A stretch of DNA of 64,000 nt from Lysobacteraceae bacterium (lineage in GTDB: Bacteria > Pseudomonadota > Gammaproteobacteria > Xanthomonadales > Xanthomonadaceae). A model generated the notes under the pieces. The model saw nothing but the letters and a program-made list of their open reading frames with translations, made no database searches and had not been told where the DNA came from. The position numbers and the translations under genes are program-made. The stretch's first letter is position 1, and each line of letters begins with the position of its first letter. This document shows positions 884 to 17,601 of this stretch, piece by piece. The DNA is taken from assembly GCA_008015095.1 (NCBI GenBank), contig SSEV01000021.1:28412-92411 (forward strand). The letters run 5' to 3'.

Positions 884-1534
884 ATGGCTTCCCGCTTTTT
901 CCCGCTCGCAGCCTTGACGATGCTCACCGCCATGATGACCAGTTGCCAAAGCGCCACCTCTACAGGAGGCAGAATGGACCCCGTTCCGGACACCTTGCCC
1001 GTCCCGGAGATCAAAGTCAGCCCGAATCCCGCACCGAAGCGCTCCTATGCGCTCACGCTGCGCTTTGCCGGGCTTCCCGCCGCCATCAACCAAGTGACGG
1101 TGTACGCCGACTACGACGTCGAGAACATCGACTGCGTCCCGCTGGACTACACGAAAGCGGTCGGCGGCATACGGCTCCCGCCCGAGCATCGTCTCGAATT
1201 GAGCCTGCATCGCGTCGACGAGAACACCTACACCGCCACGGTGCATGAGGACGCGCTGCAGGACGAGGATTATTACGGCTTGGGCGTGTGCCAATGGGCG
1301 CTGGCCGGCGCAACCGTGCACTTCAGCTCGCCGACCACGCAGTTCATCAGCGGGATCAACGCTGACGAGCTTGCCGCCGAACAGGAAACCACCGACCACT
1401 ATCTGGCTCGGGACTTCAACCAGAAGCCCGCTTTGCTGGATTTCGTCTTCGGCAAGGACTCGGCTGATTACTATCTTGCGAACCTCGGTCCGCAGTTCAC
1501 TCTGAATATCAAGGCCAACAGGGAGGCCCAATGA
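884..1534 (+). CDS. Lipoprotein, probable immunity protein (X-Tfi type) for the adjacent lipase effector
   Basis: A 216-residue protein starting at the ATG giving 'MASRFFPLAAL'; the longer ORF start at 614 would bury the signal peptide. The N-terminus is a lipoprotein signal with lipobox-like 'MMTSC', placing the mature protein in the periplasm. The body is not a family I recognise. Its stop overlaps the start of the lipase gene by ATGA, so the two are translationally coupled. In Xanthomonadales, antibacterial type IV effectors with an XVIPCD are commonly paired with a small secreted or lipidated immunity protein encoded directly beside them. The immunity role is inferred from lipidation plus this gene order, not from similarity. 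Confidence 0.7.
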   Translation: MASRFFPLAALTMLTAMMTSCQSATSTGGRMDPVPDTLPVPEIKVSPNPAPKRSYALTLRFAGLPAAINQVTVYADYDVENIDCVPLDYTKAVGGIRLPPEHRLELSLHRVDENTYTATVHEDALQDEDYYGLGVCQWALAGATVHFSSPTTQFISGINADELAAEQETTDHYLARDFNQKPALLDFVFGKDSADYYLANLGPQFTLNIKANREAQ

Positions 1535-2814
1535 CGATCAGCAGTCGCGACTACGCCGCACTGAGCGAGCATTCGTACCGGCATCCGCAGACCCCGCCGC
1601 GTAACGAAGTCGAGATCAATGGCGTCTCCTACACGGTCCTTGCCAATAGCGATCGACCCAGCGGCTACCAGGGCACGATCTATCAGCGCAACGATACCGG
1701 CGAGATCATCGTCGCCCATCGTGGGACCGAGCCGAATCGCGGCCTGCGCGAGGCCTATCGCGACTTGGTCAGCACCGACGCCACCATGGTGACGCACCGG
1801 GTCAACCAGCAATCTGCCGACGCGATTGCCCTGACCCAGCGTGCGGTCGACATCGCACGCGAACAGGCCGCGGAGCGCGGTGGTCAGGCGCCGCAGGTCA
1901 CCGTGACCGGCCATTCGCTGGGCGGCACGCTGGCGCAGATCACCGCGAACCGGTTCGGCCTGCAAGGCGAAACCTTCAACGCTTACGGCGCCGCCTCGCT
2001 GCGCGGTAACGTGCCGGAAGGCGGCAACAGCGTCATCAACCATGTCCGCGCCACCGACGTCGTCAGCGCCGGCTCCGCGCATTTCGGCCAGGTTCGGGTC
2101 TACGCCACCCAGGAAGACATCACGGCGCTACAGAATGCCGGTTATCGCAATGACCGCTCCGGTTGGGATCTGCGTAATCCGCTCAGCGTCGCCGGCAGCC
2201 GTGGGCTGCCCGCGCACGAGCTGGGGCCGTTCATCCGCGAAGGCGGCGGCGGCCCGTTGATGACCCCGGAGAACCAGCGCCGTGCCGAACAGTTCGATCC
2301 GATGATCGACAAGTTCCGTAACGACGTCGAGGCCATCCGCACCGGCATCAGCGCCGGCAGCCAAGGTTTCCGCGATGGCATCAATATCATGCGCGGCCGT
2401 TGGGACCGCCTGTTCACCGACCGCATGGATCGGGCTGACATCGGTGACGGTTCGATCATCAGCGACAACCCGATGGTCGGACAGACCTATGCCGCGCTGG
2501 CGCGCAGCGGCAACACGGGCCTGCAGAATGCGGACGCGAAGACGGTGGCCGGAATCGTGTCCAGCGCGCAGCAGGGCGGTTTGAACGAAATCAACTTCAT
2601 CGCCGAGCGCAACGGCACCGCCTACGCGATACAAGGCCGCTCGCCGGATGATCCAGGCGCGCGGGTCGTGCCGGTCAATCTCGCCGCGGCCCAAGTACAG
2701 CCATTGGCCGAGAGCTCGCGCATGGCGATGGACACTCCGCAGGGGCAGCCCGAAGTCGCCATGGCCCGTCGCGAGCAGCAACCGGATCAGCAGACGGCAG
2801 GAATGTCCCGCTGA
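1531..2814 (+). CDS. Class 3 lipase with XVIPCD-like C-terminus, probable T4SS antibacterial effector (X-Tfe)
   Basis: 427 residues. The N-terminal half is an alpha/beta-hydrolase of the class 3 lipase type: 'AHRGTEPN' near residue 62, nucleophile elbow 'TVTGHSLGGT' with Ser129, and candidate acid Asp176 ('ATDVVS') and His229 ('LPAHELGPF'). No signal peptide is seen. Residues about 310-400 resemble the XVIPCD: 'GLNEINFIAERNGTAYAIQG' followed by 'DDPGARVVPVN' and 'QPLAESS', then a Gln-rich tail, the order seen in Xanthomonas VirD4-interacting effectors. The likely job is hydrolysis of target-cell membrane lipids after type IV delivery, with the upstream lipoprotein protecting the producer. The lipase call is strong; the effector call rests on the C-terminal motif and gene pair. 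Confidence 0.8.
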   Translation: MTISSRDYAALSEHSYRHPQTPPRNEVEINGVSYTVLANSDRPSGYQGTIYQRNDTGEIIVAHRGTEPNRGLREAYRDLVSTDATMVTHRVNQQSADAIALTQRAVDIAREQAAERGGQAPQVTVTGHSLGGTLAQITANRFGLQGETFNAYGAASLRGNVPEGGNSVINHVRATDVVSAGSAHFGQVRVYATQEDITALQNAGYRNDRSGWDLRNPLSVAGSRGLPAHELGPFIREGGGGPLMTPENQRRAEQFDPMIDKFRNDVEAIRTGISAGSQGFRDGINIMRGRWDRLFTDRMDRADIGDGSIISDNPMVGQTYAALARSGNTGLQNADAKTVAGIVSSAQQGGLNEINFIAERNGTAYAIQGRSPDDPGARVVPVNLAAAQVQPLAESSRMAMDTPQGQPEVAMARREQQPDQQTAGMSR

Positions 2815-2854
2815 CACAGCGACATCTCCGCAATCCGCGTTTCTCGAACGCCAA

Positions 2855-2887
2855 ACGCCGACGATCTCGCGATCGTCGGTGTTTTTT
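2855..2887 (+). terminator. Rho-independent terminator after the lipase gene
   Basis: Inverted repeat 'ccgacgatc'/'gatcgtcgg' with a 4-base loop, followed by 'tgtttttt', 41 bases after the lipase stop codon. Confidence 0.85.
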
Positions 2888-3101
2888 ATGGCCACGCTGA
2901 GCAAATCCGTCTTGTATTTGTTCAGTGATCGCAAGCTCGGCGCAAGCCCGAACTCGCTGCCGCCGAATCGAACACTTGCATATTCGATTCCCGAGCGGCG
3001 CATTCCCTGTGTCGCGGCAACGCCGACTTTTCAGCGTTGCCTTATGTGCGGTTACGTGCGGACCGTCATTGCTACCGGCATGGATTTCCCGCATGTACCG
3101 C

Positions 3102-4043
3102 TCAGGAATACTGCGCCGTCTTGACCAGCAGATGCTTCGCAAGCTGGCCGTGCAGATAACCGATGCCGCGAGCCAAGTGCAAGGTCGCGAAGAGCAATGC
3201 CACACCGAGCACGAAGATCAGCAGCAGCATGAGGGGCCCGCCGAAGGGCACATTCGATATGCCGTCGACGAGGCCCAGCCAGATCCACCCGTCGAAGTCC
3301 GAACTGATTTCGGCGATCCCCAGCGCCACCAGGAAGGGCGAGGCCACGAATGACAACGACACACTGAGCAGGGTCACCGCCAGAGTGAAATAGATCACGC
3401 CCAAGGGCAGCATCAGCAGCATGTAGACCATCGAACTCCAGTTGCGCGGGTCGGTGAACATCTCGCCGATACGGCTCAACAGCGGCTTGCCGCGGCTGCT
3501 GTACAACGGACGCCTGGGCATGCGTTCGCCGAGCATGGTCTCCACGATCCGGCCTTCGAGCAGCGAAAACATCCGCACCGAACCGAAGAACAGGATCACG
3601 AACGGAATGCCGATGATGAGGATGCCGAGCCCGAGCGAGAGCGAAATACCGGTCACCGCCCAGGTGAAATAGAACACCCCGGTCGCCAGCGACAGCAACA
3701 TATAGAACAGCGCCGCGTAGGTGCGCGGTTCGGCGATCACGCCGAAGAAACGACCGACTATCGAGCGTGACGACTTTGCCGGCGGCGTCCGTAGCGCGCT
3801 TTGCACCTTGGCCTCGGTGTCACGATAGATCTCGGCGACCTCGTCCGGCGCGCCGTAGCTCGTCGCCACCTGTGCGATGATCTCAGCCTCGTTTTTGCCC
3901 GGATTCTCGGCAAGTTCGGAACGCAGATATTCCTCTGCGTCATATAGCGCGTCCTGGATCAGCGCGGGATCTGCCCCGGCCAGCGAACGCCGCAGGTGTT
4001 CGAGGTATTCGGGAATATTGGTCGGCAAGGCGCGGTCGTTCAT
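3102..4043 (-). CDS. HAAS-type sensor/membrane protein (DUF1700-like) under PadR control
   Basis: The start at 4043 gives 'MNDRALPTNIPEYLEH' with a GAGGGG ribosome site eight bases upstream; the longer ORF start is not needed. Residues 1-75 are a soluble helical module with 'ALYDAEEYLRSELAENPG' typical of HAAS/DUF1700 domains. After that come two internally similar blocks, each with a membrane pair ('FYMLLSLATGVFYFTWAVTG' and 'VYMLLMLPLGVIYFTLAVTL'), so the membrane part looks duplicated. A last membrane helix lies near the C-terminus. The gene overlaps the PadR regulator gene by ATGA. In this widespread arrangement the regulator and the HAAS protein respond to envelope stress or ligands; the signal here is unknown. 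Confidence 0.8.
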   Translation of the reverse strand: MNDRALPTNIPEYLEHLRRSLAGADPALIQDALYDAEEYLRSELAENPGKNEAEIIAQVATSYGAPDEVAEIYRDTEAKVQSALRTPPAKSSRSIVGRFFGVIAEPRTYAALFYMLLSLATGVFYFTWAVTGISLSLGLGILIIGIPFVILFFGSVRMFSLLEGRIVETMLGERMPRRPLYSSRGKPLLSRIGEMFTDPRNWSSMVYMLLMLPLGVIYFTLAVTLLSVSLSFVASPFLVALGIAEISSDFDGWIWLGLVDGISNVPFGGPLMLLLIFVLGVALLFATLHLARGIGYLHGQLAKHLLVKTAQYS

Positions 4044-4426
4044 GGATGTTCCCCTCTCAAAACGGAATCGACGGAATCTCGTGTGGCGCACCAGGCGGTC
4101 GTCCAGGTCTGCAACGTGGTCCGTCCGGATGCGGTGATCTGGTAATAGCGGCGCGGTGGGCCGCTGATCGACGGTTCGATCTGGCTCTCCAACAATCCCG
4201 CGGCCTCCAGATTCCGTAGCACCGGATACAACGCACTCTGCTTGCCGCTGAGCACGCCGTCCCCATGGCGTTCGAGGCTCTTGGCGATCTGATAGCCGTA
4301 CATCGGCGCATCCGTCGCCCCTAACACGCCCATCAGCGCCAGTGAAACCGTGCCGGCGGAAAGCTCTTTCTGGAATTTCCGCAGTTGGCTCTCGACCACA
4401 TCGTCCGGGACAAGTGTCTCGTTCAT
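4040..4426 (-). CDS. PadR family transcriptional regulator
   Basis: 128 residues from the ATG at 4426, which has AAGGGG seven bases upstream; the GTG two codons earlier is less well placed. The winged-helix core is visible as 'MYGYQIAKSLE', 'QSALYPVLRNLEAAGLLES' and 'PPRRYYQITASGR', the standard PadR sequence. It probably represses its own operon, which includes the HAAS membrane protein, by binding the inverted repeats just upstream. The operon promoter must lie in the AT-rich stretch from about 4430 to 4510. The effector molecule is not known. Confidence 0.9.
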   Translation of the reverse strand: MNETLVPDDVVESQLRKFQKELSAGTVSLALMGVLGATDAPMYGYQIAKSLERHGDGVLSGKQSALYPVLRNLEAAGLLESQIEPSISGPPRRYYQITASGRTTLQTWTTAWCATRDSVDSVLRGEHP

Positions 4427-4453
4427 GGCCACCCCTTGTTTGATTTACAGGTT

Positions 4454-6572: not shown

Positions 6573-7994
6573 ATGCCGGTCGCGCTTCGTCCCGGAATGA
6601 TGATCGACGGTTTTGAACTCATCGCGCCGCTGCATGAGGGCGGGATGGCCACGCTCTGGCGAGTCTCGCATCCGCAGCATGGCATGCCGCTGCTGATGAA
6701 GCTGGCGCGGATCGGTTACGGCGAAGCGGCGACCCAGATCGTCGGCTTCGAAGTCGAACGGATGATCCTGCCGCAGCTCACCGGCCCCTATGTCCCGAAA
6801 TTCATCGCTGCGGGCGACTACGAAGACCAGCCGTGGCTGGTGATGGAGCATCTTTCCGGAGAAACCTTGCGTCCGCTGCTTGAGCGCGCGCCCCTGCCGC
6901 CGACGCAGGTGGCCGAACTCGGCGCATTGGCCGCGGCCGCGATCCACCATCTGCACCAGCAGGACACGATTCACCTCGATATCAAGCCGAGCAATCTGCT
7001 GCGGAGGCCCGACGGCGAGATCGCCCTGATCGATTTCGGCCTGTCGCATCACGCGCATCTGCCAGATCTGCTGGCCGAACAGTTCCGCGTACCGATCGGC
7101 ACCGCGCCCTATATCGCACCGGAACAGGTGTTGGGACAGCGCGACGATCCACGCAGCGATCTGTTCGCGCTGGGCGTCACGCTCTATCACTTGGCGACCG
7201 GCGAGCGCCCGTTCGGCAATCCGGGCAGCCCCGCCGGCCTGCGCCGTCGCTTGTATCGCGACCCGGTGCCGCCACGCGCCATTCGGCCCGAGATCCCACG
7301 CTGGTTGCAGGAGGTGGTGCTGCGCTGCCTCGAAGTGGACCCGGATGCACGCCACGCCACAGCCGCCCAGCTCGCACACGACCTGCAGCATCCCGATCAG
7401 GTGATGCTGACCGATCGCGCGGAGCGCAGCCATCGCGACGGCAGATTCACGGTGCTGCAACGCTGGTGGCGCAGCCTGGGCCGCGACCGCAATCCCCAGG
7501 CGTCCAAGCCCGCGACGCATCTGGACGAAGCGCCGCTGTTGATGGTGGCGATCGACCTCAAGCACGAGGATCGCGCCCTGTGCGAAGCGCTGCGCGGCAA
7601 TCTTAAACGCATCGTTTCGACCTTCCCGAAATCGCGGCTGGCCTGCGTCACCGTCATGCGCACCGCACGCATCGGCATGGACAGCAATCTCGACGCCGAA
7701 GGCCGCAATCGCCACGTGAAACGATTGATCGCGTTGCGCGACTGGGTCCGCCGGCTCGATCTCGACGAACATCGCATCACCGTGCACGTGCTCGAACACA
7801 GCGACCCTGCCCATGCATTGATCGACTACGCACGCGACAACGGCGTGGACCACCTGATCATGGGCGCCCGCGGCGTGACCGGCGTGCGCCGCATCCTCGG
7901 CAGCGTCTCCGCCCGCGTGGTCGCGGAAGCGCCGTGCACCGTGACCGTGGTACGCGCAGCCGAAGCGCAGGCGGCGGACACCGAGACGCCATAG
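6573..7994 (+). CDS. Ser/Thr protein kinase fused to a universal stress protein domain
   Basis: 473 residues. The kinase part (about 10-275) shows a loose glycine loop 'LHEGGMATLW', Lys43 in 'PLLMKLA', catalytic loop 'HLDIKPSNLL' (HLD in place of HRD, so a non-RD kinase), 'IDFG' at 153-156 and 'YIAPEQ'. Residues about 315-465 form a universal stress protein domain ending in 'LIMGARGVTGVRRILGSVSARVVAEAPCTVTVV', with the Gly-rich ATP-binding motif typical of USPs. The protein is cytoplasmic with no membrane helix. It follows the metallophosphoesterase gene by one base. The fusion suggests stress-linked phosphorylation; targets are unknown. Confidence 0.9.
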   Translation: MPVALRPGMMIDGFELIAPLHEGGMATLWRVSHPQHGMPLLMKLARIGYGEAATQIVGFEVERMILPQLTGPYVPKFIAAGDYEDQPWLVMEHLSGETLRPLLERAPLPPTQVAELGALAAAAIHHLHQQDTIHLDIKPSNLLRRPDGEIALIDFGLSHHAHLPDLLAEQFRVPIGTAPYIAPEQVLGQRDDPRSDLFALGVTLYHLATGERPFGNPGSPAGLRRRLYRDPVPPRAIRPEIPRWLQEVVLRCLEVDPDARHATAAQLAHDLQHPDQVMLTDRAERSHRDGRFTVLQRWWRSLGRDRNPQASKPATHLDEAPLLMVAIDLKHEDRALCEALRGNLKRIVSTFPKSRLACVTVMRTARIGMDSNLDAEGRNRHVKRLIALRDWVRRLDLDEHRITVHVLEHSDPAHALIDYARDNGVDHLIMGARGVTGVRRILGSVSARVVAEAPCTVTVVRAAEAQAADTETP

Positions 7995-8162
7995 AGCGCG
8001 TCCGCTGCAAGCATCATCCGCCCGCGCCCCGGCCGACGCCACGAAGGCTTCATGTGAATCGATCAAGTCCCAGGGCCTTGGCGTTTTCGAACATCAAAAA
8101 CAGCCCGATCGCCCGGATGGCGGGCAGGGCCCCATCCTGCGCCTGGCTGCGAAGCATCCGCC

Positions 8163-8193
8163 AAACAACAGGCCGCCCGGAGGCGGCCTGTTG
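8163..8193 (-). terminator. Hairpin after the TonB-dependent receptor gene
   Basis: Perfect 12-base arms 'caacaggccgcc'/'ggcggcctgttg' around 'cgga'. Read on the minus strand the stem is followed only by TTT, so the U-tract is weak. It lies about 40 bases beyond the receptor stop codon. Confidence 0.65.
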
Positions 8194-8233
8194 TGGTTCA
8201 AGCGAACGATAACCCGTTCGATGATCTCGCCGA

Positions 8234-10678
8234 TCAGAACTCCTGACTGAACTTGATGCCGATCGTCCGCGGCTGGCCGCTGACGGTGTACACCTGCGCG
8301 GCGCAGACCGTTTCCGGGCACTGCACGTTGCGGCCGTACTGCGCGTTCTCGTCGAGCAGGTTCTTGATGTAGAGATCCACCGACCAGTTGTTCTTGCGCA
8401 CGCCGAACGCCATATCGACCAGACTGTACGACGGCAGGTCGCCGAGGATGTTGCGCTCGAGGATACGCAGATCCGAGGTGCGCCGGCCTTCGGTCATCAC
8501 CGAGCCCTGCCAATAGGCTTCGTAGTCGCGGATGTCGAAGGTGTAACGCGCGGTCAGGTTGCCCTTGTAGTCGGCGGTGACCGGCAGACGCGTGCCATCC
8601 GGCGCCTGCAGATCGGCCGGATCGCAGGTGGTGATCGGATTGCCGTTGGCATCGATCGCGCCGCAATAGTTCTCGGTCAGTTCCGCATCGTAGAAGCCCA
8701 CGCCCGCAGATAGCTTGAGGTTGTAGCTCGCCGCCCAGTTCACGTCCATTTCGAGACCCTGGATCCGGGCCTGGTTGGCGTTGCGGATTTCGGTCAGGCC
8801 GTTCTGACCCAAGACCGGGAACTGGAAGTCGTCCCAGATCTGATGGAAGGCCGCACCGTTGAAGGTCAGGCGGTTATCGAACCAGGACGTCTTCCAACCG
8901 ATCTCGTAATTGGTCAGGAACTCGGTGATGTACGGCGGCAAGGTGCCGCGACGGTTGATGCCGCCCGGGCGATACCCTTCCGACCAGGTGAAATACATCA
9001 TCTTGTCGGGGCGGAACTTGTACGAGAGATTGACCTTGCCGAGCGTGTCTTTTTCGCTCACATCCTTGTCGAACACGGTGCAGGGCGCGCCCTCGAACGA
9101 CGGCCAGTTCGCAGGATCCGGACCGTAGCGCACGATGCACGCGGCCTCGCCGTAGCGGTTCTGCGGCAGCTGGCCGCCCTGCGAGGCGTAGCCGTTGGCG
9201 AAGCCGAAGAAGCCCTTGAGGCTGTTGTCGGCGCGGAAGTGGCGGAACCCGACCGTGCCGGTCAGCTTGTCGGTGAAGTCGTAGGACAGTTCGCCGAAGA
9301 TCGCTTCGTCGTGATCCTTGCGCAACTGTTTGGTCAGCCAGATGGTGTCTTCCCAGCCGCGCACCGAGAGGATCGAGGCGAGGCCATCGACGCGATAGCG
9401 CTGCTGGATGTCGTGGCTCTGATCCATCCAGAACAGGCCCGCGACGAAGCGCAGGCGGTTTTCCTGAGGCGAGGCGATGCGCAGTTCGTGACTGGTCTTC
9501 TTATAGCCGTCTTTGCCTTGGATGTACTGCGCCGGATTCACCAGATCGCCGTTGTCGTCGTAGAAATACGCGCCGTAGCCGAATAGGGTGTCGTACCAGA
9601 AGCCGTAGTCGCTGTAGTCCGAATCGGTGTCGACATCGCGCTTGAGGTGGGCGAATGCGTAGGTCAGGTCGAAGTTGCCGATCTTGCCCTGCAAGGTCAG
9701 CGCCGCCTGAGCCCAGCGGTCGTCGGAGAATTCGCGATAGGCGTGGCTGATCTTGCCTTCGCCGAGCGTGTTGTCGTAGGCGAAGTTGCCGTTGACCTCC
9801 TGACGCTGCCCCATGATCGTGGGCGTGATCGTCCAGTTGTCGTTGAGGTCGACCTTCAACGCGATACGCGCGCCGGCGGTGTCGACATCGTTGTAGTCGT
9901 CCTCGACCCGGTCCGCGTTGTTCTGCGTGATGCCCGAGGTCGGGAAGGTGCGTTCGCCGTAAACGTTGTCGACCCAGCCGGCGTCGTGCTTCTGCCAACC
10001 GACCAGGCGCACCGCCGCGCGATCGCCCATCGGGATGTTGACGAAGCCTTCGGCGACATGGCCCCAACCGCCACCGGTGATGGTGCTGGCTTCAAGGCCG
10101 TAGCCCGCGGAGAAACCCGCGGTGTCCGGCTTGCGGGTCACCAGCTTGAGCGTGCCCGCTTCCGAACTCGCGCCATAGAGGGTGCCCTGCGGACCGGACA
10201 GCGCTTCGACACGCTCGATATCGTAGACGTGCAGATCCAGCGCGCCCTGGATCGTGGTGATCGGCTGCTCGTCGAGATAGATGCCGACGCTGGGCAGCGG
10301 GCCGGAATGGTTGCCGTCGCCGCCGCTGGCCACGCCGCGCATATAGACCTGGCCGAAGCCGGGGCCATTCGGCGTGATCGATACGCTGGGCAACAACTTG
10401 GCGTAATCCTCGAAGTCGTTGACCTGCAACTCGTCGAGCTGCTGTGCGCCAATCACGTTCAGGCTGATCGGCACGTCCTGCGCCTTCTCGGTGCGTTTCT
10501 GCGCAGTCACCGTGATGGTTTCGAGGGTCGGACTGCCGTCCTGCCCCTCGTCGCTGTCCTGGGCCATCGCCATCCCGGCGAAGGCCATGCTGCCGAAGGC
10601 GACGCAAATCGCCGCGGTCAGCGGCAAACGCCGCAACTCAACCGGTCGCGCCGGTCCGGTACCTCGTTTGTGTCGCAT
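8234..10678 (-). CDS. TonB-dependent outer-membrane receptor
   Basis: 814 residues. A signal peptide ends near 'MAMAQDSD', followed by a TonB box-like 'ETITVTAQKR', plug domain motifs ('SLNVIGAQQL', 'YMRGVASGG', 'VEALSGPQGTLYG', 'GTLKLVTRKP') and a 22-strand type barrel ending 'TIGIKFSQEF' with the terminal Phe needed for assembly. It lies 57 bases downstream of a TPR-sulfotransferase gene on the same strand, so both are probably one transcript. This pairing recurs in sphingomonads and xanthomonads. The ligand is unknown; nothing nearby points to iron. Confidence 0.92.
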   Translation of the reverse strand: MRHKRGTGPARPVELRRLPLTAAICVAFGSMAFAGMAMAQDSDEGQDGSPTLETITVTAQKRTEKAQDVPISLNVIGAQQLDELQVNDFEDYAKLLPSVSITPNGPGFGQVYMRGVASGGDGNHSGPLPSVGIYLDEQPITTIQGALDLHVYDIERVEALSGPQGTLYGASSEAGTLKLVTRKPDTAGFSAGYGLEASTITGGGWGHVAEGFVNIPMGDRAAVRLVGWQKHDAGWVDNVYGERTFPTSGITQNNADRVEDDYNDVDTAGARIALKVDLNDNWTITPTIMGQRQEVNGNFAYDNTLGEGKISHAYREFSDDRWAQAALTLQGKIGNFDLTYAFAHLKRDVDTDSDYSDYGFWYDTLFGYGAYFYDDNGDLVNPAQYIQGKDGYKKTSHELRIASPQENRLRFVAGLFWMDQSHDIQQRYRVDGLASILSVRGWEDTIWLTKQLRKDHDEAIFGELSYDFTDKLTGTVGFRHFRADNSLKGFFGFANGYASQGGQLPQNRYGEAACIVRYGPDPANWPSFEGAPCTVFDKDVSEKDTLGKVNLSYKFRPDKMMYFTWSEGYRPGGINRRGTLPPYITEFLTNYEIGWKTSWFDNRLTFNGAAFHQIWDDFQFPVLGQNGLTEIRNANQARIQGLEMDVNWAASYNLKLSAGVGFYDAELTENYCGAIDANGNPITTCDPADLQAPDGTRLPVTADYKGNLTARYTFDIRDYEAYWQGSVMTEGRRTSDLRILERNILGDLPSYSLVDMAFGVRKNNWSVDLYIKNLLDENAQYGRNVQCPETVCAAQVYTVSGQPRTIGIKFSQEF

Positions 10679-10735
10679 TTCAGTCTCCCCGGTTATTGAA
10701 CATCGGAACGCAAGGTGGAACGGTTGGAACAGCTC

Positions 10736-12784
10736 TCATGCGGCGCCCCTGGCGAGATCGGGCGTCGCGAATTCCGGAACATCGGGATAGGCGTCGAGCA
10801 CCGGCCCGAGCGCCGCCTTTAACGGGTCGAGCCAAGGCTCGTAGTGCCGCCATTGGTCAATGCCGTCGCGGTTGATCGGCCGGCGCACCTGCTCCGAACT
10901 CGCGGTGCGCACCGGGCGGTCGTTCTCGTAGAAGCGCAGGCACGCGTCTTCGAACGGCAGACCGCAATAATCGAGCAGGCGTCTGACCTCGGCTTCGGTG
11001 TCGTCGACCATGCGCTCGTGAATCACGCGATGCACGCGATGCGGCAGCCCGCAGTCGGCGAACACCGTATCGAAATGCGCCATCAGTTCGACGTAATCGC
11101 GATAGTAGCGGCCAAGGTCTTCCAGACCGTAGCTGAACTTCTGGCCGCGCGCGAAATGCTGTTTGAACCCGGAGAAGCAACAGGCCATCGGGTGCCGGCG
11201 CGCATCGACAATCTTCGCGTTCGGCAGCATCAGATGAATCAGGCCCAGATGCAGGAAATTATTCGGCATCTTGTCGATGAACAGCGGCGCGGCGCTCTTG
11301 CGCTGCACACGGGTGCGTTCCAGGTACTGGCGGCCGAGTTCGCGGAATTGCGCCGGGTCGAGTGTCGCGACCGCTTCATGGTAGTTGGTTGAATTTCCCG
11401 CGTCGCGCCGCAGCGCCCGGGTCATCGAGATGATCTCCGGCAATTCCATCGTGCCTTCGACCGCCGAATGACTGGACAGGATCTGTTCGAGCAGGGTCGA
11501 GCCTGACCGCGGCAGGCCGACGATGAAGATCGGGTCCGCCGCGGGGTCGCCGCAACCGGCGCGTGCGGCGAAGAACCCGCAGGTATACACCTGTCTGGCG
11601 CGGGCGACGCGCGCCGTGGTGTCGCCCGCGCGATACGGCACCTGCTCCAGACGGATGCGGTTGGCGGCGCGGTAATGTTCGAAGGATTCGGCATAGTCGG
11701 CGCGGTCTTCCAAGGCCTTGCCCAGGGTGAACCCGAAATGCAGGCGGTGCTCGGCGTCGAGATCCGCGCGCGCCAGTTGCGCGCGCATGCGCGCGACATC
11801 GTCGTCGTCGAAACGGAAGGTCTTGAGATTGGCCAGGCTCCACCACGCCTCACCGAATCCGGGATCCTCTTCGGTGCAGCGCCGGTACGCGGCGATCGCC
11901 TCGGCCTGACGGCCCTCGGTTTTCAGCGCGTGGCCGTAGCTCATCCAGACGCGCGCGTTGTGCGGGTAGTCGCGCAGCAGTTCCTCGTACAGCGCGATGC
12001 CGCGCGCGTATTCGCCGAGCCTGCACAAGACGGCCGCCTTGAGCGTGCGTGCGCCTGGGTTCGTGGGGTCGTCGACGAGCAACAGATCCAACTGTTCCAG
12101 CGCCTTCGCCGACTGCTGGTCGCGGTGCAACACCAGCGCGTAGTGCTGGCGCGCTTCGCGGAATCCTGGCGCGAGTTCCAGACAGCGCGCGAACAGGCGC
12201 AGGGCCTCGGCGTTGCGGCCGACACGCACAGCCAGTTCGCCCAGCATCCGGATCGCGACCACATCGGTGGGATGTTCCTTGAGCCATGCGCGCAACGCGG
12301 CCTCCGCCTCGGGAAGGCGGTCGGCTGCCAAGGCTTCGGCCGCATGCAGCAAGGCGGGATCGCGCACGGAATGCCGGATGTAGGCCGCATAGGCCGCGTC
12401 GGCGCGATCGAGTCGGCCGACCGCGCGTTCGTAGTCGGCGAGCGCAAGCCACACTTGGGGCAATGCCGGATTAGTCGCGATCGCGCGATGGAGGGCCTCG
12501 ATCGCCTCTTCGGTGCGGCCGGCGCGGGCCACGGCCAGCGCATATTCGTATTGCCCGCGCGGCATCCCCGGTTGCGACCGCGTCAACGGCGCCAGCAACT
12601 CGATCGCGCGCTCCAGCCGGCCGCACATCCGGTGAGAGATCCCGAGAATCATCTGCGCGACCGGATGGTCGCGGACCACGCTCAGGATTTCGTCGGCTTG
12701 GCGACCGGCCAGTTCCGGATCGCTCGCGAGCAATTGCGCGGCGTGTTGCAATGCGACATCGACACTGGCTGTGGCTGCGGTCAA
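10736..12784 (-). CDS. TPR-repeat sulfotransferase
   Basis: 682 residues. Residues 1-370 are a run of tetratricopeptide repeats ('AIELLAPLTRSQPGMPRGQYEYALAVARAGR' is one). The C-terminal sulfotransferase domain begins with the PAPS 5'-phosphosulfate loop 'IFIVGLPRSGSTLLEQILSSH' (about 420) and has the 3'-phosphate site 'IVDARRHPMACCFSGFKQ'. It would transfer sulfate from PAPS to a protein or small molecule, with the TPR part choosing the partner. The start shown is TTG; no ATG or GTG fits better and no good ribosome site is seen, so the start is uncertain. It precedes the TonB-dependent receptor gene. Confidence 0.88.
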   Translation of the reverse strand: MTAATASVDVALQHAAQLLASDPELAGRQADEILSVVRDHPVAQMILGISHRMCGRLERAIELLAPLTRSQPGMPRGQYEYALAVARAGRTEEAIEALHRAIATNPALPQVWLALADYERAVGRLDRADAAYAAYIRHSVRDPALLHAAEALAADRLPEAEAALRAWLKEHPTDVVAIRMLGELAVRVGRNAEALRLFARCLELAPGFREARQHYALVLHRDQQSAKALEQLDLLLVDDPTNPGARTLKAAVLCRLGEYARGIALYEELLRDYPHNARVWMSYGHALKTEGRQAEAIAAYRRCTEEDPGFGEAWWSLANLKTFRFDDDDVARMRAQLARADLDAEHRLHFGFTLGKALEDRADYAESFEHYRAANRIRLEQVPYRAGDTTARVARARQVYTCGFFAARAGCGDPAADPIFIVGLPRSGSTLLEQILSSHSAVEGTMELPEIISMTRALRRDAGNSTNYHEAVATLDPAQFRELGRQYLERTRVQRKSAAPLFIDKMPNNFLHLGLIHLMLPNAKIVDARRHPMACCFSGFKQHFARGQKFSYGLEDLGRYYRDYVELMAHFDTVFADCGLPHRVHRVIHERMVDDTEAEVRRLLDYCGLPFEDACLRFYENDRPVRTASSEQVRRPINRDGIDQWRHYEPWLDPLKAALGPVLDAYPDVPEFATPDLARGAA

Positions 12785-12864
12785 GAGGGGTCTGCTTGAG
12801 TAGTTCCGGTCGTTCGTCCTAGGCAGGTCGCCTACTGGGCCTGACCGCCCGCAGGCCGTCTCGC

Positions 12865-12884
12865 TTGCCGACGATCATCGGCAA
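12865..12884. promoter_or_regulatory. 20-base near-perfect palindrome between divergent genes
   Basis: TTGCCGACGATCATCGGCAA, with one mismatched pair, between the divergent TPR-sulfotransferase and FdhF-like genes. It is well placed for an operator serving either promoter; the binding protein is unknown. Confidence 0.4.
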
Positions 12885-12958
12885 TCTTCGCCGATGGCAG
12901 GTAGGCCGTCCAGCATCGACGGCCGCTGCGACCGCGCCGGCTGCGCTAGCATGCGGGC

Positions 12959-15403
12959 ATGACGCGACATCGGAACGAGCAGGAGAACGGACGGGACGAA
13001 GGGTCTGATCCGTCCGGCGAGAGCGGGTCCATTGGGATCAGACTTTACGATAAGCCCGCCGGCGGCTGGGATGCGCTGCGGGCATCGTGGCAGGCACTGC
13101 GCGACCAACAAGCGCTGCGCCAAGGCGCGACCAGCCTGCTGCGGGCCAATCAGCCCGGCGGGTTCGATTGCCCGGGCTGCGCATGGCCGGATCGCAACCC
13201 GCACTCGACCTTCGAATTCTGCGAAAACGGCGTCAAAGCGGTCGCGAACGAATCGACGTCGAAGCGAGTCGGACGCGCGTTCTTCGCCGAACATCCGGTG
13301 TCGTGGCTGGCGCAACAGAGCGATGAGTTCCTCGAAGCCCAGGGGCGCCTGATCGAACCGATGGCCTACGACGCCGTCAGCGACCGCTACGTGCCGATCG
13401 AATGGGACGCCGCGTTCGCGCGGATCGCCGCCGCGCTCCGCGCTCTGGGTTCGCCCGATGAAGCGATCTTCTACACCTCGGGCCGGACGTCGAACGAGGC
13501 TGCATTCCTGTACCAGTTGTTCGTGCGCGCCTACGGCACCAACAACCTCCCGGACTGTTCGAACATGTGCCACGAGGCGTCCGGCGTGGCCCTGACTGAA
13601 CAGATCGGCAGCGGCAAGGGGTCGGTGACGCTGGAGGATTTCGAACGCGCCGACGCGATCTTCGTGTTCGGACAGAACCCGGGCACCAATCATCCGCGCA
13701 TGCTCGGCGAGTTGCGCAATGCGGCTCGTCGCGGCTGCAGGATCGTGGTCTTCAATCCCCTGCGCGAGCGCGGACTGGAGCGTTTCGTCGATCCGCAGTC
13801 GCCGCGCGAAATGCTCGGCGGCGACGCGACCGCGATCGCTTCGCATTATTTCCAGCCAAGGATCGGCGGCGATCTCGCGGTCGCCGCCGGGATCGCCAAA
13901 ACCGTGCTCGCGCGCGCGCGGCCCGGCAACGATGCTGTAGATACCGCGTTTATCGCCATGCACACGCTCGGTTTCGAGTGCTTCGCCGAAACGCTGGAAA
14001 GGATCTCCTGGGACGAGATCGAACGCGAATCCGGACTGGCCCGGGCGCAACTGGAACAGGCCGCGCAGGTCTACCTCGACAGTCATGCCACGATCTTTTG
14101 CTGGGGCATGGGCATCACCCAGCACCGACGCAGCGTGGCCACGATCCAGATGCTGATCAACCTGATGCTGCTGCGCGGGAACATCGGCAGGCCCGGCGCC
14201 GGCCCCTGCCCGGTGCGCGGCCACTCCAACGTGCAGGGCGACCGCACGATGGGCATCTACGAGAAACCTTCCGCGGCCTTCCTCGACCGCCTCGGCGCCG
14301 AATTCGGATTCGAACCGCCGCGCGCGCACGGCTTCGACACCATCGCCGCGATCGAGGCGATGCGCGATGGCCGCGGCAAAGTCTTCTTCGCGATGGGCGG
14401 CAATTTCGCCGCGGCGACGCCCGACACCGCGATCACCCACGCGGCGTTGCGCAACTGCGCGCTCACCGTGCAGGTCAGCACCAAACTCAACCGTTCCCAT
14501 GTCATCCACGGCCGCGAAGCGCTGATCCTGCCCTGCCTCGGCCGCACTGAGATCGATGCCCAGCGCGAAGGCGCGCAAGCGGTCAGCGTCGAGGATTCGA
14601 TGAGTATGGTGCATCTGTCTTCCGGCATGAACCCGCCCGCTTCGGACCGGCTGATGTCCGAACCGGCGATCGTGGCCCGGCTCGCGGCCGCGACTCTGCC
14701 GGACAGCGCGATCCCGTGGCTGGCGCTGATCGCGCATTACGACCGTATCCGCGAACGCATCGCGCGCGTGGTGCCCGGCTTCGAAGATTTCAATGCGCGC
14801 GTGCGGAAGCCCGGTGGTTTCCATCTGCGTCATCCCTGCCGCGAACGCGAATTCCCGAATCCGCAGGGCAAGGCGCGCTTCATCGCGCATGCCTTGGGCG
14901 ACGCCGACGCGCCTCACGCGGCAGAGGCCTCAAGCATGACTGCGGCGGCGGCCGCGCCGGAAGCGGTTTCGGAAGCGGCATCAGGAGGGGCGCCGGGCCC
15001 GACGCCCCTTCTGCACAAGCCGCTGCTGCATATGATGACGATTCGCGCGCACGACCAATACAACACCACGGTCTACAGCGCCAACGACCGTTACCGCGGC
15101 GTGCACGGGTTGCGCCGGGTCTGCTTCATCTCGCGCGCTGATCTCGACGCCTTGGGTTTCGCCGACGGCGACCATGTCGACCTGATCTCGGTCTGGCGGG
15201 ACGAAGAACGCATCGCCCGCGATTTCCGTCTCGTCGAATACGATATCCCACCGGGTTGCGTGGCCGGATATTTTCCTGAAACCAATGTGCTGGTGCCTTT
15301 GGATCACCATGCCGAACACGCGCGCACGCCTGCGTCGAAATCGATTCCGGTGCGGCTGCGGCGGACGGCTAACGCGACGGCGACGGGGGGAGCGACGGCA
15401 TGA
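12959..15403 (+). CDS. FdhF/YdeP family molybdopterin oxidoreductase
   Basis: 814 residues. A conserved N-terminal cysteine pair appears as 'FDCPGCAWPD', as in YdeP-type proteins rather than the usual 4Fe-4S pattern. The molybdopterin domain starts near 'EPMAYDAVSDRYVPIEWDAA', with 'SGRTSNEAAFLYQLF', the Mo-ligand region 'CSNMCHEASGVAL', 'FVFGQNPGTNHPRM' and 'LRGNIGRPGAGPCPVRGHSNVQGDRTMG'. The C-terminal dinucleotide-binding domain includes 'RAHDQYNTTVYSANDRYRG'. No Tat signal is seen, so it is cytoplasmic. The substrate is unproven; E. coli YdeP is linked to acid resistance. The gene overlaps the next by ATGA and is two genes from fdhD, needed for cofactor sulfuration. Confidence 0.88.
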   Translation: MTRHRNEQENGRDEGSDPSGESGSIGIRLYDKPAGGWDALRASWQALRDQQALRQGATSLLRANQPGGFDCPGCAWPDRNPHSTFEFCENGVKAVANESTSKRVGRAFFAEHPVSWLAQQSDEFLEAQGRLIEPMAYDAVSDRYVPIEWDAAFARIAAALRALGSPDEAIFYTSGRTSNEAAFLYQLFVRAYGTNNLPDCSNMCHEASGVALTEQIGSGKGSVTLEDFERADAIFVFGQNPGTNHPRMLGELRNAARRGCRIVVFNPLRERGLERFVDPQSPREMLGGDATAIASHYFQPRIGGDLAVAAGIAKTVLARARPGNDAVDTAFIAMHTLGFECFAETLERISWDEIERESGLARAQLEQAAQVYLDSHATIFCWGMGITQHRRSVATIQMLINLMLLRGNIGRPGAGPCPVRGHSNVQGDRTMGIYEKPSAAFLDRLGAEFGFEPPRAHGFDTIAAIEAMRDGRGKVFFAMGGNFAAATPDTAITHAALRNCALTVQVSTKLNRSHVIHGREALILPCLGRTEIDAQREGAQAVSVEDSMSMVHLSSGMNPPASDRLMSEPAIVARLAAATLPDSAIPWLALIAHYDRIRERIARVVPGFEDFNARVRKPGGFHLRHPCREREFPNPQGKARFIAHALGDADAPHAAEASSMTAAAAAPEAVSEAASGGAPGPTPLLHKPLLHMMTIRAHDQYNTTVYSANDRYRGVHGLRRVCFISRADLDALGFADGDHVDLISVWRDEERIARDFRLVEYDIPPGCVAGYFPETNVLVPLDHHAEHARTPASKSIPVRLRRTANATATGGATA

Positions 15404-15654
15404 GCGAAGAGCATGCGCTCGCCCTGCTCGGTCTGCTTGCGCAGGAAGACGGGCAGTCGTTGCCGCGGCTCGCGAAACGACTCGGTCTTGGCGCCAGCGA
15501 ATTGCGCCGTTTGCTGGCCGCGCTGGGACATGATGCGCGCTATGACGGCCTCGGCCTTGTCGAACAGCGCCAAGACGGCGAACGCACCCTACTGTGGCTG
15601 ACCGCGCGCGGGCGCACGTTGTGCGCAACCGGCAACCGCGAGAACGCGCCATGA
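15400..15654 (+). CDS. Small winged-helix-like protein between the oxidoreductase and fdhD
   Basis: 84 residues, with ATGA overlaps on both sides, so translation is tied to both neighbours. 'LPRLAKRLGLGASELRRLLAALG' looks like a helix-turn-helix and 'GLVEQRQDGERTLLWLTARGRTL' like a wing, so it resembles a MarR/IclR-type winged helix reduced to its core. It may act as a regulator or as an assembly factor for the molybdoenzyme. I do not recognise a named family. Confidence 0.75.
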   Translation: MSEEHALALLGLLAQEDGQSLPRLAKRLGLGASELRRLLAALGHDARYDGLGLVEQRQDGERTLLWLTARGRTLCATGNRENAP

Positions 15655-16469
15655 CCACGACAATTGTCGATGGATTGCGTGCGCACCTGGTCACGCATCA
15701 TGGCGACGGGACACCGTTGCGGCGCGAAGAGCGCGTCATCGAGGAAACGCCGATCGCCCTGCTCTACAATGGCCGCTCGTTCGCGGTGATGATGGCCACG
15801 CCCTGCGACCTTGCTGACTTCGCGCTGGGTTTCGCGCTCAGCGAGGGCATCGTCGGCTCGCCCGCCGAGTTCGAACTGGTCGATATCGTGCGCGCGGAGA
15901 ACGGCATCGCGCTGCATGCGGCGATTCCGCAGTCGCGATTCGAGGCTTTGGACTCGCGGCAGCGCACGCTCGAAGGTCGCAGCGGATGCGGGCTCTGCGG
16001 CATCTCCCATCTGGAGGCCGCGCTGCGCCCCCACCCTGTGGCCGCTGACGGCCCGCATGTGCCGGCGTCGCGCATCCGCGAAGGTCTGGACCTGCTCGCG
16101 CGACACCAGCCGCTCAACGCCCGCAGCGGCGGCGTGCACGCCGCCGGCTTTGTCCACGGCGACGGTAAGACCATGGAGATTCTCGTGCGCGAAGACGTCG
16201 GACGCCATAACGCCCTGGACAAACTGGTTGGCGCAATGCGCCGCTGCGAACCGGCGATCGATCCCCATGGCGGATTTCTCACGATCACATCGCGCGCCTC
16301 TTACGAAATCGTGCATAAGGCGGCGTGCGTCGGCATCTCGATCGTGGTCGCGATCTCTGCGCCGACCAGCCTCGCGATCCGCTGCGCCCGCGACGCCGAT
16401 CTGACCCTGATCGGATTCGCGCGCGACGGCCGGATGAATGTCTACCACGGCGACGACCGGATTCGCTGA
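15651..16469 (+). CDS. fdhD: Formate dehydrogenase accessory sulfurtransferase FdhD
   Basis: 272 residues from the ATG at 15651, which overlaps the previous stop. FdhD passes sulfur from a cysteine desulfurase to the molybdenum cofactor of formate dehydrogenase-type enzymes. The sulfur-carrying CxxC is clear in 'RSGCGLCGISH', as are 'ALGFALSEGIV', 'SGGVHAAGFV', 'REDVGRHNALDKLVG' and 'TSRASYEIVHKAA'. Its place at the end of this operon supports the idea that the upstream protein is a true molybdoenzyme needing a sulfurated cofactor. Confidence 0.96.
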   Translation: MTTTIVDGLRAHLVTHHGDGTPLRREERVIEETPIALLYNGRSFAVMMATPCDLADFALGFALSEGIVGSPAEFELVDIVRAENGIALHAAIPQSRFEALDSRQRTLEGRSGCGLCGISHLEAALRPHPVAADGPHVPASRIREGLDLLARHQPLNARSGGVHAAGFVHGDGKTMEILVREDVGRHNALDKLVGAMRRCEPAIDPHGGFLTITSRASYEIVHKAACVGISIVVAISAPTSLAIRCARDADLTLIGFARDGRMNVYHGDDRIR

Positions 16470-16522
16470 GCGCAATCCGCGCCTCTCTTGTTTCGGCCTG
16501 CGCGCGAAACGCGCGGCGGCGC

Positions 16523-17491
16523 TCAGGGCAGCGCTTGCAGCGCTGCGAGCAAGGCGGGGCGTAATTTGGCGATAGCTGCGCCTTCGGAGCGGGATACTTC
16601 GATGTGCAACGCCGAAAGCAGCATCCACAGGTCATGCCTGCGCGCCAGCCATGCCGTATCCCGATATGCGAGGCCGGGCTCGCCGAGACGGCCACGCAGG
16701 TCTTCGAACCATGCGCCCCACTCCGCCTCCTCGTGCAATCCGCGCATGGCCACGAACAACAGCGGTCGCGCCAGCCGTTCGGATTCGCCGAACACATAGG
16801 CATGCGCATCGCGGGGCACGGCCTGCTCCGCGATGGCGCGGATGATCCGATCCAATTCTGGTTTGCCGATGTTCGGATTCAGCGCCAACTGCATCAACCA
16901 GTCGGCGCCGTGCGCGACGCCGTGCCGCCAACCGACATCGCGATCGAAGCCGCGATAGTCGCGCACGCTTTCCAGATAGGCCGCAGCGCGCTCGACCATC
17001 GCCGCACGCTCCTCCGCCGTCATCCATGGCGAAACGCGATCGGTACGCGCGATCTCGGCCAACACCAGGGCCGCGAACGGACGGGCCACGCCATGGCGGT
17101 CGCGGCCATCGAGCATCGTGCGCAAACGCTTTTCCAGCATGCGCAACCGCTCGGGGCCGAATGCGCCGGCCCGCATCCAGTGCTGCAGCGCTTCGTAGGC
17201 GACGCCATCGCGCAATTCCGCGGACGGAGAGGACAGACAACCGATCAGCGCCTCGGCGAGCGCAAAGCGCGCGGTCGGGTCTTCGATCGCGAAAGACCGC
17301 TCCTTCAATTCCTGCAAGGCCGTACGAGTCCAACTCGCAGGCGGACATGCCGCACGCGCGACCTCGACCATCGGGCACAAAAAAAGAAGCAACGCTACCG
17401 ATATCCACGCTCTGCTTCCCCGCTTTAAACGACGACAGCGCTGCCATGCCGCATCTGCGCGCGATCGCGCGACTGTTATCGACCGATGCAT
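16523..17491 (-). CDS. Secreted DUF2785-domain protein
   Basis: 322 residues from the ATG at 17491, which has GAGAGGGG seven bases upstream; the ORF track start at 17542 lacks this. A long basic N-region is followed by a hydrophobic stretch 'WISVALLLFLCPMVEVARA' that reads as a signal peptide. The rest is all-helical, with 'FDRDVGWRHGVAHGADWLMQLALNP' characteristic of DUF2785. The biochemical role of the family is not established. It is convergent with fdhD. Confidence 0.75.
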   Translation of the reverse strand: MHRSITVARSRADAAWQRCRRLKRGSRAWISVALLLFLCPMVEVARAACPPASWTRTALQELKERSFAIEDPTARFALAEALIGCLSSPSAELRDGVAYEALQHWMRAGAFGPERLRMLEKRLRTMLDGRDRHGVARPFAALVLAEIARTDRVSPWMTAEERAAMVERAAAYLESVRDYRGFDRDVGWRHGVAHGADWLMQLALNPNIGKPELDRIIRAIAEQAVPRDAHAYVFGESERLARPLLFVAMRGLHEEAEWGAWFEDLRGRLGEPGLAYRDTAWLARRHDLWMLLSALHIEVSRSEGAAIAKLRPALLAALQALP

Positions 17492-17601
17492 CTGCGCACC
17501 CCTCTCAAATCGCATGATCGCCACGATACGTCGATGCGGCACATGCGCCTAGTGCGTCGACGCCCTATGCTTGCCCCACCTCCGCTCGATTCAACAATGT
17601 C

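What the first reader, a model, noticed from the sequence alone, without database searches (positions are those of the whole stretch)
884..2814. Lipoprotein plus XVIPCD-lipase: a candidate type IV antibacterial effector/immunity pair
Seen: ATGA-coupled lipoprotein and class 3 lipase genes; lipase C-terminus with 'GTAYAIQG...DDPGARVVPVN...PLAES' and a Gln-rich tail, no signal peptide. Known: XVIPCD effectors of Xanthomonas, Stenotrophomonas and Lysobacter carry such tails and sit beside lipidated immunity proteins. Inference: a lipase-type X-Tfe delivered into rivals, blocked at home by the upstream lipoprotein.
Basis: partly seen in the sequence, partly recalled or inferred. Interest (0 to 1): 0.75.

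Follow-up and report, generated by a model that had tools for sequence, protein, structure and literature searches.

The report
Antibacterial lipase with its lipoprotein antidote
Two overlapping genes in an uncultured Lysobacter-like bacterium very probably encode a fat-splitting toxin that a type IV secretion system injects into rival bacteria, together with the membrane-anchored antidote that protects the producer; this is a new member of a pair already proven in Stenotrophomonas (TfcA and its immunity protein).

Summary
Lipoprotein CDS 884-1534 overlaps lipase CDS 1531-2814 by ATGA. The lipase passes Pfam cut-offs for Lipase_3 and for XVIPCD (PF20410, residues 312-397), keeps an invariant Ser/Asp/His, and its modelled tail matches the solved XVIPCD of X. 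citri XAC2609. The genome (75% complete MAG) has 18 XVIPCD matches and X-T4SS genes virB7 (with N0-type domain), virB8-11 and a contig-edge virD4 fragment; VirB4 is not in the assembly, but 8 of 8 near-complete congeners encode it. A homologous lipoprotein lies directly upstream of the lipase in all 79 testable named-genome loci. One of these is S. maltophilia TfcA (next to TfcB): published work shows TfcA is T4SS-delivered, lethal in the periplasm and countered by its immunity lipoprotein. Hence: new member of a known kind. Two additions: the lipoprotein family has no Pfam, NCBIfam or solved-fold match; and it carries an ATG within 10 codons of the lipobox, often with a Shine-Dalgarno (51/72 versus 1/102 control lipoproteins), suggesting a second, cytosolic antidote form. 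The window copy has a very strong such site (AGGAGG), although its closest relatives lack it. Binding, secretion and toxicity of this pair remain untested.

The parts
884..1534 (+). X-Tfi-like immunity lipoprotein gene (216 aa)
   Evidence: ORF; no Pfam, NCBIfam or PHROG family; homologous to the lipoprotein gene upstream of S. maltophilia TfcA (31% over 144 aa, E 2e-20); AlphaFold2 mean pLDDT 84, beta-rich, no PDB fold match at E<=0.001
884..946 (+). signal peptide and lipobox MTSC (Cys21)
   Evidence: sequence; Cys21 invariant in 17 homologues
964..976 (+). AGGAGG (964-969), 4-nt spacer, and internal ATG (974-976): candidate second start giving a cytosolic form
   Evidence: anti-SD energy -10.3 kcal/mol against +0.6 at the annotated ATG 884; family-wide enrichment
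1133..1297 (+). conserved core of the lipoprotein: Cys84, Cys136 (possible disulphide) and the D123...DEDYYG...GVC-W138 motif
   Evidence: C84, D123, G134 and C136 conserved in essentially all of 81 aligned homologues
1522..1526 (+). GGAGG Shine-Dalgarno of the lipase gene, inside the lipoprotein gene
   Evidence: sequence
1531..2814 (+). lipase effector gene (427 aa), start overlapping the lipoprotein stop (ATGA)
   Evidence: ORF; Lipase_3 + XVIPCD; 39% identical to the TfcA homologue
1711..1965 (+). Lipase_3 domain core (residues 61-145)
   Evidence: PF01764, 24.2 bits, cut-off 22
1915..2217 (+). span of presumed catalytic triad: Ser129 (1915-1917, GHSLGG), Asp176 (2056-2058), His229 (2215-2217)
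   Evidence: all three invariant in 17 sequences; S129 and D176 invariant and H229 over 90% in 82
2464..2721 (+). XVIPCD, the presumed VirD4-recognition/secretion signal (residues 312-397)
   Evidence: PF20410, 26.2 bits, cut-off 24.9; Foldseek match to 7mu9
2722..2811 (+). disordered Gln-rich C-terminal tail (residues 398-427)
   Evidence: sequence; pLDDT below 50 from residue 405
2853..2890 (+). hairpin with T-rich end, likely intrinsic terminator of the two-gene operon
   Evidence: -22.4 kcal/mol, z -4.75; the simple terminator scan did not list it, perhaps because the stem pairs into the T-run

Best explanation
The two genes are an antibacterial effector/immunity pair of the Xanthomonadales-type bactericidal T4SS. 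The lipase (X-Tfe) is made in the cytoplasm without a signal peptide. VirD4 recognises its C-terminal XVIPCD, and the X-T4SS injects it into the periplasm of a touching Gram-negative rival, where a Ser129/Asp176/His229 hydrolase attacks membrane lipids. The co-translated lipoprotein (X-Tfi) is lipidated at Cys21, held in the producer's periplasm, and binds the lipase to stop self-damage by leaked or injected enzyme. Shown here by sequence: domains, triad, operon, pairing across the family, machinery in the genome, homology to TfcA/RS14240. Inferred: delivery, lipid target, binding and neutralisation in this organism. A second, cytosolic antidote form from the internal ATG at 974 is plausible but less certain.
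For: XVIPCD and Lipase_3 above cut-off. 18 XVIPCD matches in the same genome, including an M23 peptidase effector. VirB7(N0)-VirB8-VirB9-VirB10-VirB11 cluster and VirD4 fragment. VirB4 in all 8 near-complete congeners. All 20 homologous places in relatives, and 79 of 79 named-genome loci with upstream sequence, have the homologous lipoprotein gene directly upstream. One is TfcA, identified by its neighbour TfcB (7r6s, 636 bits). Published: TfcA is a T4SS substrate, kills E. coli when sent to the periplasm, and its immunity protein RS14240 largely reverses this (PMC8262851). The lipase model resembles the E. cloacae T6SS lipase effector solved with its immunity protein (9cys) and fungal lipases.
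Against: VirB4 (hence an intact T4SS) is not in this assembly and VirD4 is truncated at a contig edge. The XVIPCD score is barely above cut-off. TfcA itself gave no VirD4 signal in a two-hybrid test (PMC11253643), so XVIPCD-VirD4 binding is not shown for this family. Lipoprotein identity to the tested homologue is low (31% over 144 aa). No complex was modelled, and no measured enzyme activity was found for a family member in the papers read.
Confidence: 0.87

Rival explanations
1. Effector delivered by a type VI secretion system (a Tle-type phospholipase with its Tli), with the XVIPCD match being incidental.
For: The lipase fold is close to the E. cloacae T6SS lipase Tle (7ubz by sequence profile, 9cys by fold), which also has a lipoprotein antidote.
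Against: No VipB/TssC in the genome, which instead has a large XVIPCD repertoire; a homologue (TfcA) is an experimentally shown T4SS substrate (PMC8262851).
Confidence: 0.03
2. A remnant: the pair (or the whole X-T4SS) is no longer functional in this organism, and the genes persist as immunity or decay products.
For: VirB4 not found. Some homologues are broken: split lipase genes in two relatives and an XVIPCD-less lipase in G002.
Against: Both window ORFs are intact with the full triad and XVIPCD; virB7-11 are intact. The genome is only 75% complete and every near-complete congener has VirB4.
Confidence: 0.06
3. An ordinary housekeeping or secreted lipase with an accessory lipoprotein (for example a lipase-specific foldase or a lipid/PHB metabolism gene next to the upstream PHB depolymerase).
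For: A PHB depolymerase gene lies directly upstream (67-642).
Against: No signal peptide; XVIPCD tail; homologues sit in other neighbourhoods (next to TfcB in S. maltophilia); what is conserved is the pairing with the lipoprotein.
Confidence: 0.03

Closest known systems
TfcA (Smlt2990, SMLT_RS14245) and immunity protein SMLT_RS14240 of Stenotrophomonas maltophilia (PMC8262851)
   Same: Same lipase family (39% identity, E 1e-76 to the D457 homologue; 50% in the lipase domain), same upstream lipoprotein family, same gene overlap
   Different: Lipoprotein only 31% identical over 144 aa; C-terminal part about 21% identical; TfcA lies near the vir locus with a second lipoprotein copy upstream, the window pair is elsewhere and single; the window copy is untested
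X-Tfe XAC0574 / X-Tfi XAC0573 of Xanthomonas citri
   Same: Listed X-Tfe/X-Tfi pair; the X. cissicola homologue of the window lipase (42% identity, 440 aa) has the length implied by the XAC0574 XVIPCD residues 317-440 (PMC6759196)
   Different: Identity with XAC0574 itself was inferred from length and species group, not checked against the accession
Tle/Tli of Enterobacter cloacae T6SS (PDB 9cys; PMC11470151, PMC10294624)
   Same: Lipase fold; lipoprotein antidote; alternative starts downstream of the signal sequence giving a cytosolic antidote
   Different: Delivered by T6SS; Tli is an ankyrin-repeat protein, whereas the window lipoprotein is predicted beta-rich and matches no solved fold
X-Tfe XAC2609 / X-Tfi XAC2610 of X. 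citri
   Same: XVIPCD (7mu9) and periplasmic lipoprotein antidote
   Different: XAC2609 is a lysozyme-like peptidoglycan hydrolase and XAC2610 resembles PliI-type lysozyme inhibitors (PMC6536674, PMC10933484)

Membership tests
X-Tfe (XVIPCD effectors of the X-T4SS) | C-terminal XVIPCD | tested here: met
   PF20410 residues 312-397, 26.2 bits vs 24.9; fold match 7mu9
X-Tfe (XVIPCD effectors of the X-T4SS) | Gln-rich tail and no signal peptide | tested here: met
   sequence read directly; tail disordered
X-Tfe (XVIPCD effectors of the X-T4SS) | genome encodes an X-T4SS (VirB1-11, VirD4, VirB7 with C-terminal N0 domain) | tested here: inconclusive
   VirB7 with N0-type (TcpQ) domain, VirB8-11, VirD4 fragment; VirB4 absent from a 75% complete MAG, present in 8 of 8 near-complete congeners
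X-Tfe (XVIPCD effectors of the X-T4SS) | VirD4 binding and T4SS-dependent secretion | not testable with these tools
   T4SS dependence published for homologue TfcA (PMC8262851); its VirD4 two-hybrid test was negative (PMC11253643)
X-Tfi (immunity proteins) | gene upstream of, and coupled to, the X-Tfe gene | tested here: met
   ATGA overlap; 79/79 homologous loci
X-Tfi (immunity proteins) | signal peptide and lipobox when the effector acts in the periplasm | tested here: met
   MTS-C21; Cys invariant in 17 homologues
X-Tfi (immunity proteins) | binds and neutralises the cognate effector | not testable with these tools
   published for homologue RS14240 in E. coli (neutralisation only; PMC8262851)
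Class 3 lipase (Lipase_3) | alpha/beta hydrolase fold with GxSxG Ser, Asp, His | tested here: met
   PF01764; S129, D176, H229 conserved; fold matches 1uza, 9cys
T6SS Tle lipase effectors | T6SS in the genome | tested here: not met
   no VipB/TssC in G000, with the caveat of 75% completeness
TfcA subfamily | sequence homology in both partners | tested here: met
   TfcA identified by neighbour TfcB

The most novel reading that the evidence does not exclude
The antidote of this lipase family is made in two forms from one gene: a periplasmic lipoprotein and, from a start just after the lipobox, a cytosolic protein that holds the new lipase until VirD4 takes it (a guard against leakage, or a chaperone). 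This would be a convergent counterpart, in an unrelated protein fold and another secretion system, of the dual-role Tli of E. cloacae. Support: an ATG within 10 codons of the lipobox in 63 of 72 family members versus 8 of 102 control lipoproteins; with Shine-Dalgarno 51 versus 1. Limits: related sequences are not independent (12 of 15 clusters at 50% identity mostly have the ATG, only 6 of 15 mostly have the Shine-Dalgarno too), the window's closest orthologues lack the site, and TfcA kills without any antidote present (PMC8262851), so activation as in Tle is unlikely.
Probability: 0.3. Interest if true: 0.55.

Novelty: new member of a known kind. Interest (0 to 1): 0.35.

Why it matters
It places an X-T4SS arsenal with a TfcA-type lipase in an uncultured Lysobacter-like genus known from MAGs. 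It also shows that one lipase/lipoprotein pairing is kept without exception across the Xanthomonadaceae and Rhodanobacteraceae genomes sampled. The lipoprotein family has no Pfam or NCBIfam entry and no solved structure, although one member (RS14240) has a published protection phenotype. The enriched internal start turns the 2019 proposal that X-Tfis exist in periplasmic and cytosolic forms (PMC6536674) into a family-wide, directly testable prediction.

Tried and rejected
No solved structure or fold was found for the lipoprotein (PDB profile search; Foldseek, best E 0.07) and no family name. A complex prediction was not possible: only single proteins can be folded. PF03135 (VirB4) in the own genome gave nothing; I first read this as a possible refutation, then found virB7-11 and the congeners' VirB4. 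The internal-start idea was checked for generality in the own genome: among 14 other X-Tfe genes only two had an upstream lipoprotein by my rule, and neither had a Shine-Dalgarno-preceded ATG, so no claim is made beyond the lipase family. Co-divergence of the modules showed lipoprotein identity tracking lipase-domain identity slightly better than the C-terminus does (Spearman 0.62 vs 0.51), with some apparently swapped C-termini, but species relatedness confounds it. A Tle-like activation by the antidote was considered and thought unlikely because TfcA kills E. coli without its antidote. T6SS delivery rejected.

Full report
Observation. The window carries, at 884-1534 and 1531-2814 on the + strand, a 216-aa lipoprotein gene and a 427-aa lipase gene that overlap by ATGA. 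A GGAGG Shine-Dalgarno for the lipase lies inside the lipoprotein gene (1522-1526). A strong hairpin ending in a T-run (2853-2890; -22.4 kcal/mol, z -4.75) closes the operon. The gene upstream is the end of a PHB depolymerase and looks unrelated.

Lipase. Pfam places Lipase_3 at residues 61-145 and X-Tfes_XVIPCD at residues 312-397, both above their curated cut-offs. Ser129 (GHSLGG), Asp176 and His229 are invariant in 17 homologues; over 82 sequences S129 and D176 stay invariant and H229 exceeds 90%. AlphaFold2 gives mean pLDDT 81. Foldseek finds fungal lipases/feruloyl esterase, the E. cloacae T6SS lipase effector solved with its immunity protein (9cys), TfcB (7r6s) and the NMR XVIPCD of X. 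citri XAC2609 (7mu9, probability 1.00). A profile search of PDB sequences independently finds 7r6s, 7mu9 and 9p3h through the C-terminus and the T6SS lipase 7ubz through the lipase domain. Lipase_3 is found in 82 of 82 relatives and XVIPCD in 46 of 82 at E 0.01; the rest may have diverged tails, and one relative (G002) is truncated.

Machinery. The window lies in a 3.5-Mb, 75% complete MAG. This genome has 18 XVIPCD matches, none of the 14 control genomes has any, and one effector carries M23 peptidase and peptidoglycan-binding domains. VirB4 is not in the assembly, but VirB7 (lipoprotein with a TcpQ/N0-type domain), VirB8, VirB9, VirB10 and VirB11 form a cluster beside mfd on contig C175, and a VirD4 C-terminus starts contig C74. 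A VirB7 with an N0 domain is a stated criterion for an X-T4SS (PMC6536674). In the complete congener G004, virB4 and virB6 sit in a separate cluster, about 160 kb from virB10 if the single contig is circular, which explains how an assembly can hold one half only. All 8 near-complete congeners encode VirB4; the genomes without it in the genus are the three incomplete ones. No T6SS sheath gene was found.

Pairing. The lipase family was traced in relatives and in named GTDB genomes: Xanthomonas, Stenotrophomonas, Lysobacter, Luteimonas, Pseudoxanthomonas, Vulcaniibacterium, Luteibacter, Dyella, Rhodanobacter, and one MAG labelled Erythrobacter. In all 20 places in relatives and 79 of 79 named loci with upstream sequence (some are the same genomes), a homologous lipoprotein gene ends at or within about a dozen bases of the lipase start. 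Several loci hold a second lipoprotein copy further upstream.

Link to an experiment. In S. maltophilia D457 (L140) the lipase neighbours a protein matching the TfcB structure 7r6s over its full length (636 bits), so it is TfcA (smlt2990; TfcB is smlt2992). It is 39% identical to the window lipase and its lipoprotein is 31% identical over 144 aa. Published work (PMC8262851) shows TfcA is a T4SS substrate needed for killing, lethal to E. coli when sent to the periplasm and harmless in the cytoplasm, and that immunity protein RS14240 protects E. coli and P. aeruginosa and largely reverses PelB-TfcA killing. TfcA was negative for VirD4 binding in a two-hybrid assay (PMC11253643). X. citri XAC0574/XAC0573 is probably the same type (length match only).

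The lipoprotein. It has no Pfam, NCBIfam or PHROG match. The model is confident (pLDDT above 90 for 137 residues), beta-rich, and matches no solved fold. C84, D123, G134 and C136 are conserved in essentially all of 81 sequences; the two cysteines could form a periplasmic disulphide (inference).

A second start. In the window, ATG974 (residue 31, ten codons after Cys21) is preceded by AGGAGG (-10.3 kcal/mol to the anti-SD, spacer only 4 nt), whereas the annotated start has none (+0.6). Across 72 family members with a recognisable lipobox, 63 have an ATG within 10 codons of the Cys and 51 have it with a Shine-Dalgarno of -4 kcal/mol or better; among 102 other lipoproteins from two related genomes and the window the numbers are 8 and 1. 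By clusters at 50% identity, 12 of 15 mostly have the ATG and 6 of 15 mostly have both. The position varies (Cys+3, +4, +6, +7, +8, +10), which fits selection for a start rather than for a methionine at one place. The window's nearest orthologues (G003, G005-G008) lack it. Sgro et al. 2019 proposed such alternative starts for X. citri X-Tfis (PMC6536674); a 2024 study found that a cytosolic XAC2610 protects against its effector (PMC10933484); and E. cloacae Tli is made in periplasmic and cytosolic forms, the latter activating its lipase (PMC10294624, PMC11470151). Since TfcA kills without its antidote, a guard or chaperone role is more likely here than activation.

Verdict. The pair is a new member of the TfcA-type lipase X-Tfe/X-Tfi. 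What remains unproven is binding, enzyme activity, secretion by this organism, and whether its T4SS is complete.

Noticed in passing
L065 (G000:C175:10000-29999) 13838-18661 and L061 (G004:C1:4098000-4117999) 7811-14561: The X-T4SS of this genus appears split in two loci: virB7-8-9-10-11 beside mfd, and a cluster with virB4, virB6 and an SLT transglycosylase (virB1-like) beside PHA genes, about 160 kb apart in the complete congener if its contig is circular; in X. citri the genes form one locus.
   Followed up: partly
L010 837-2984 (G000:C232, - strand) and L007 3-1040 (G000:C183, + strand): Two effectors carry two XVIPCDs in tandem (a HExxH-type protein of 716 aa and a truncated 346-aa frame); tandem secretion domains may be unusual.
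   Followed up: partly
L140 1423-2307; L101, L102, L128, L130, L132, L136, L144, L145; L038: A second copy of the immunity lipoprotein lies about 700 bases upstream of the pair in Stenotrophomonas and in one congener: possible spare or orphan immunity gene.
   Followed up: no
L039/L046 (G010:C31) and L040/L047 (G030:C36): Lipase genes split in two frames while the upstream lipoprotein stays intact: decayed effector with retained antidote.
   Followed up: no
L034 (G002:C23): A lipase homologue of 389 aa with lipoprotein but no recognisable XVIPCD, resembling the 'atypical T4E' idea (PMC10989847).
   Followed up: no
L001 (G000:C193:21118-21498): A second Lipase_3 protein in the genome (420-aa frame, best Lipase_3 score) was not among the XVIPCD matches.
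   Followed up: no
window 3102-4432, - strand: Neighbours on the other strand: a 'Sensor'-domain (Pfam) membrane protein and an ORF that looks like a PadR-type regulator by eye; the sensor protein lies next to the pair in several congeners too (L023, L026, L027).
   Followed up: partly
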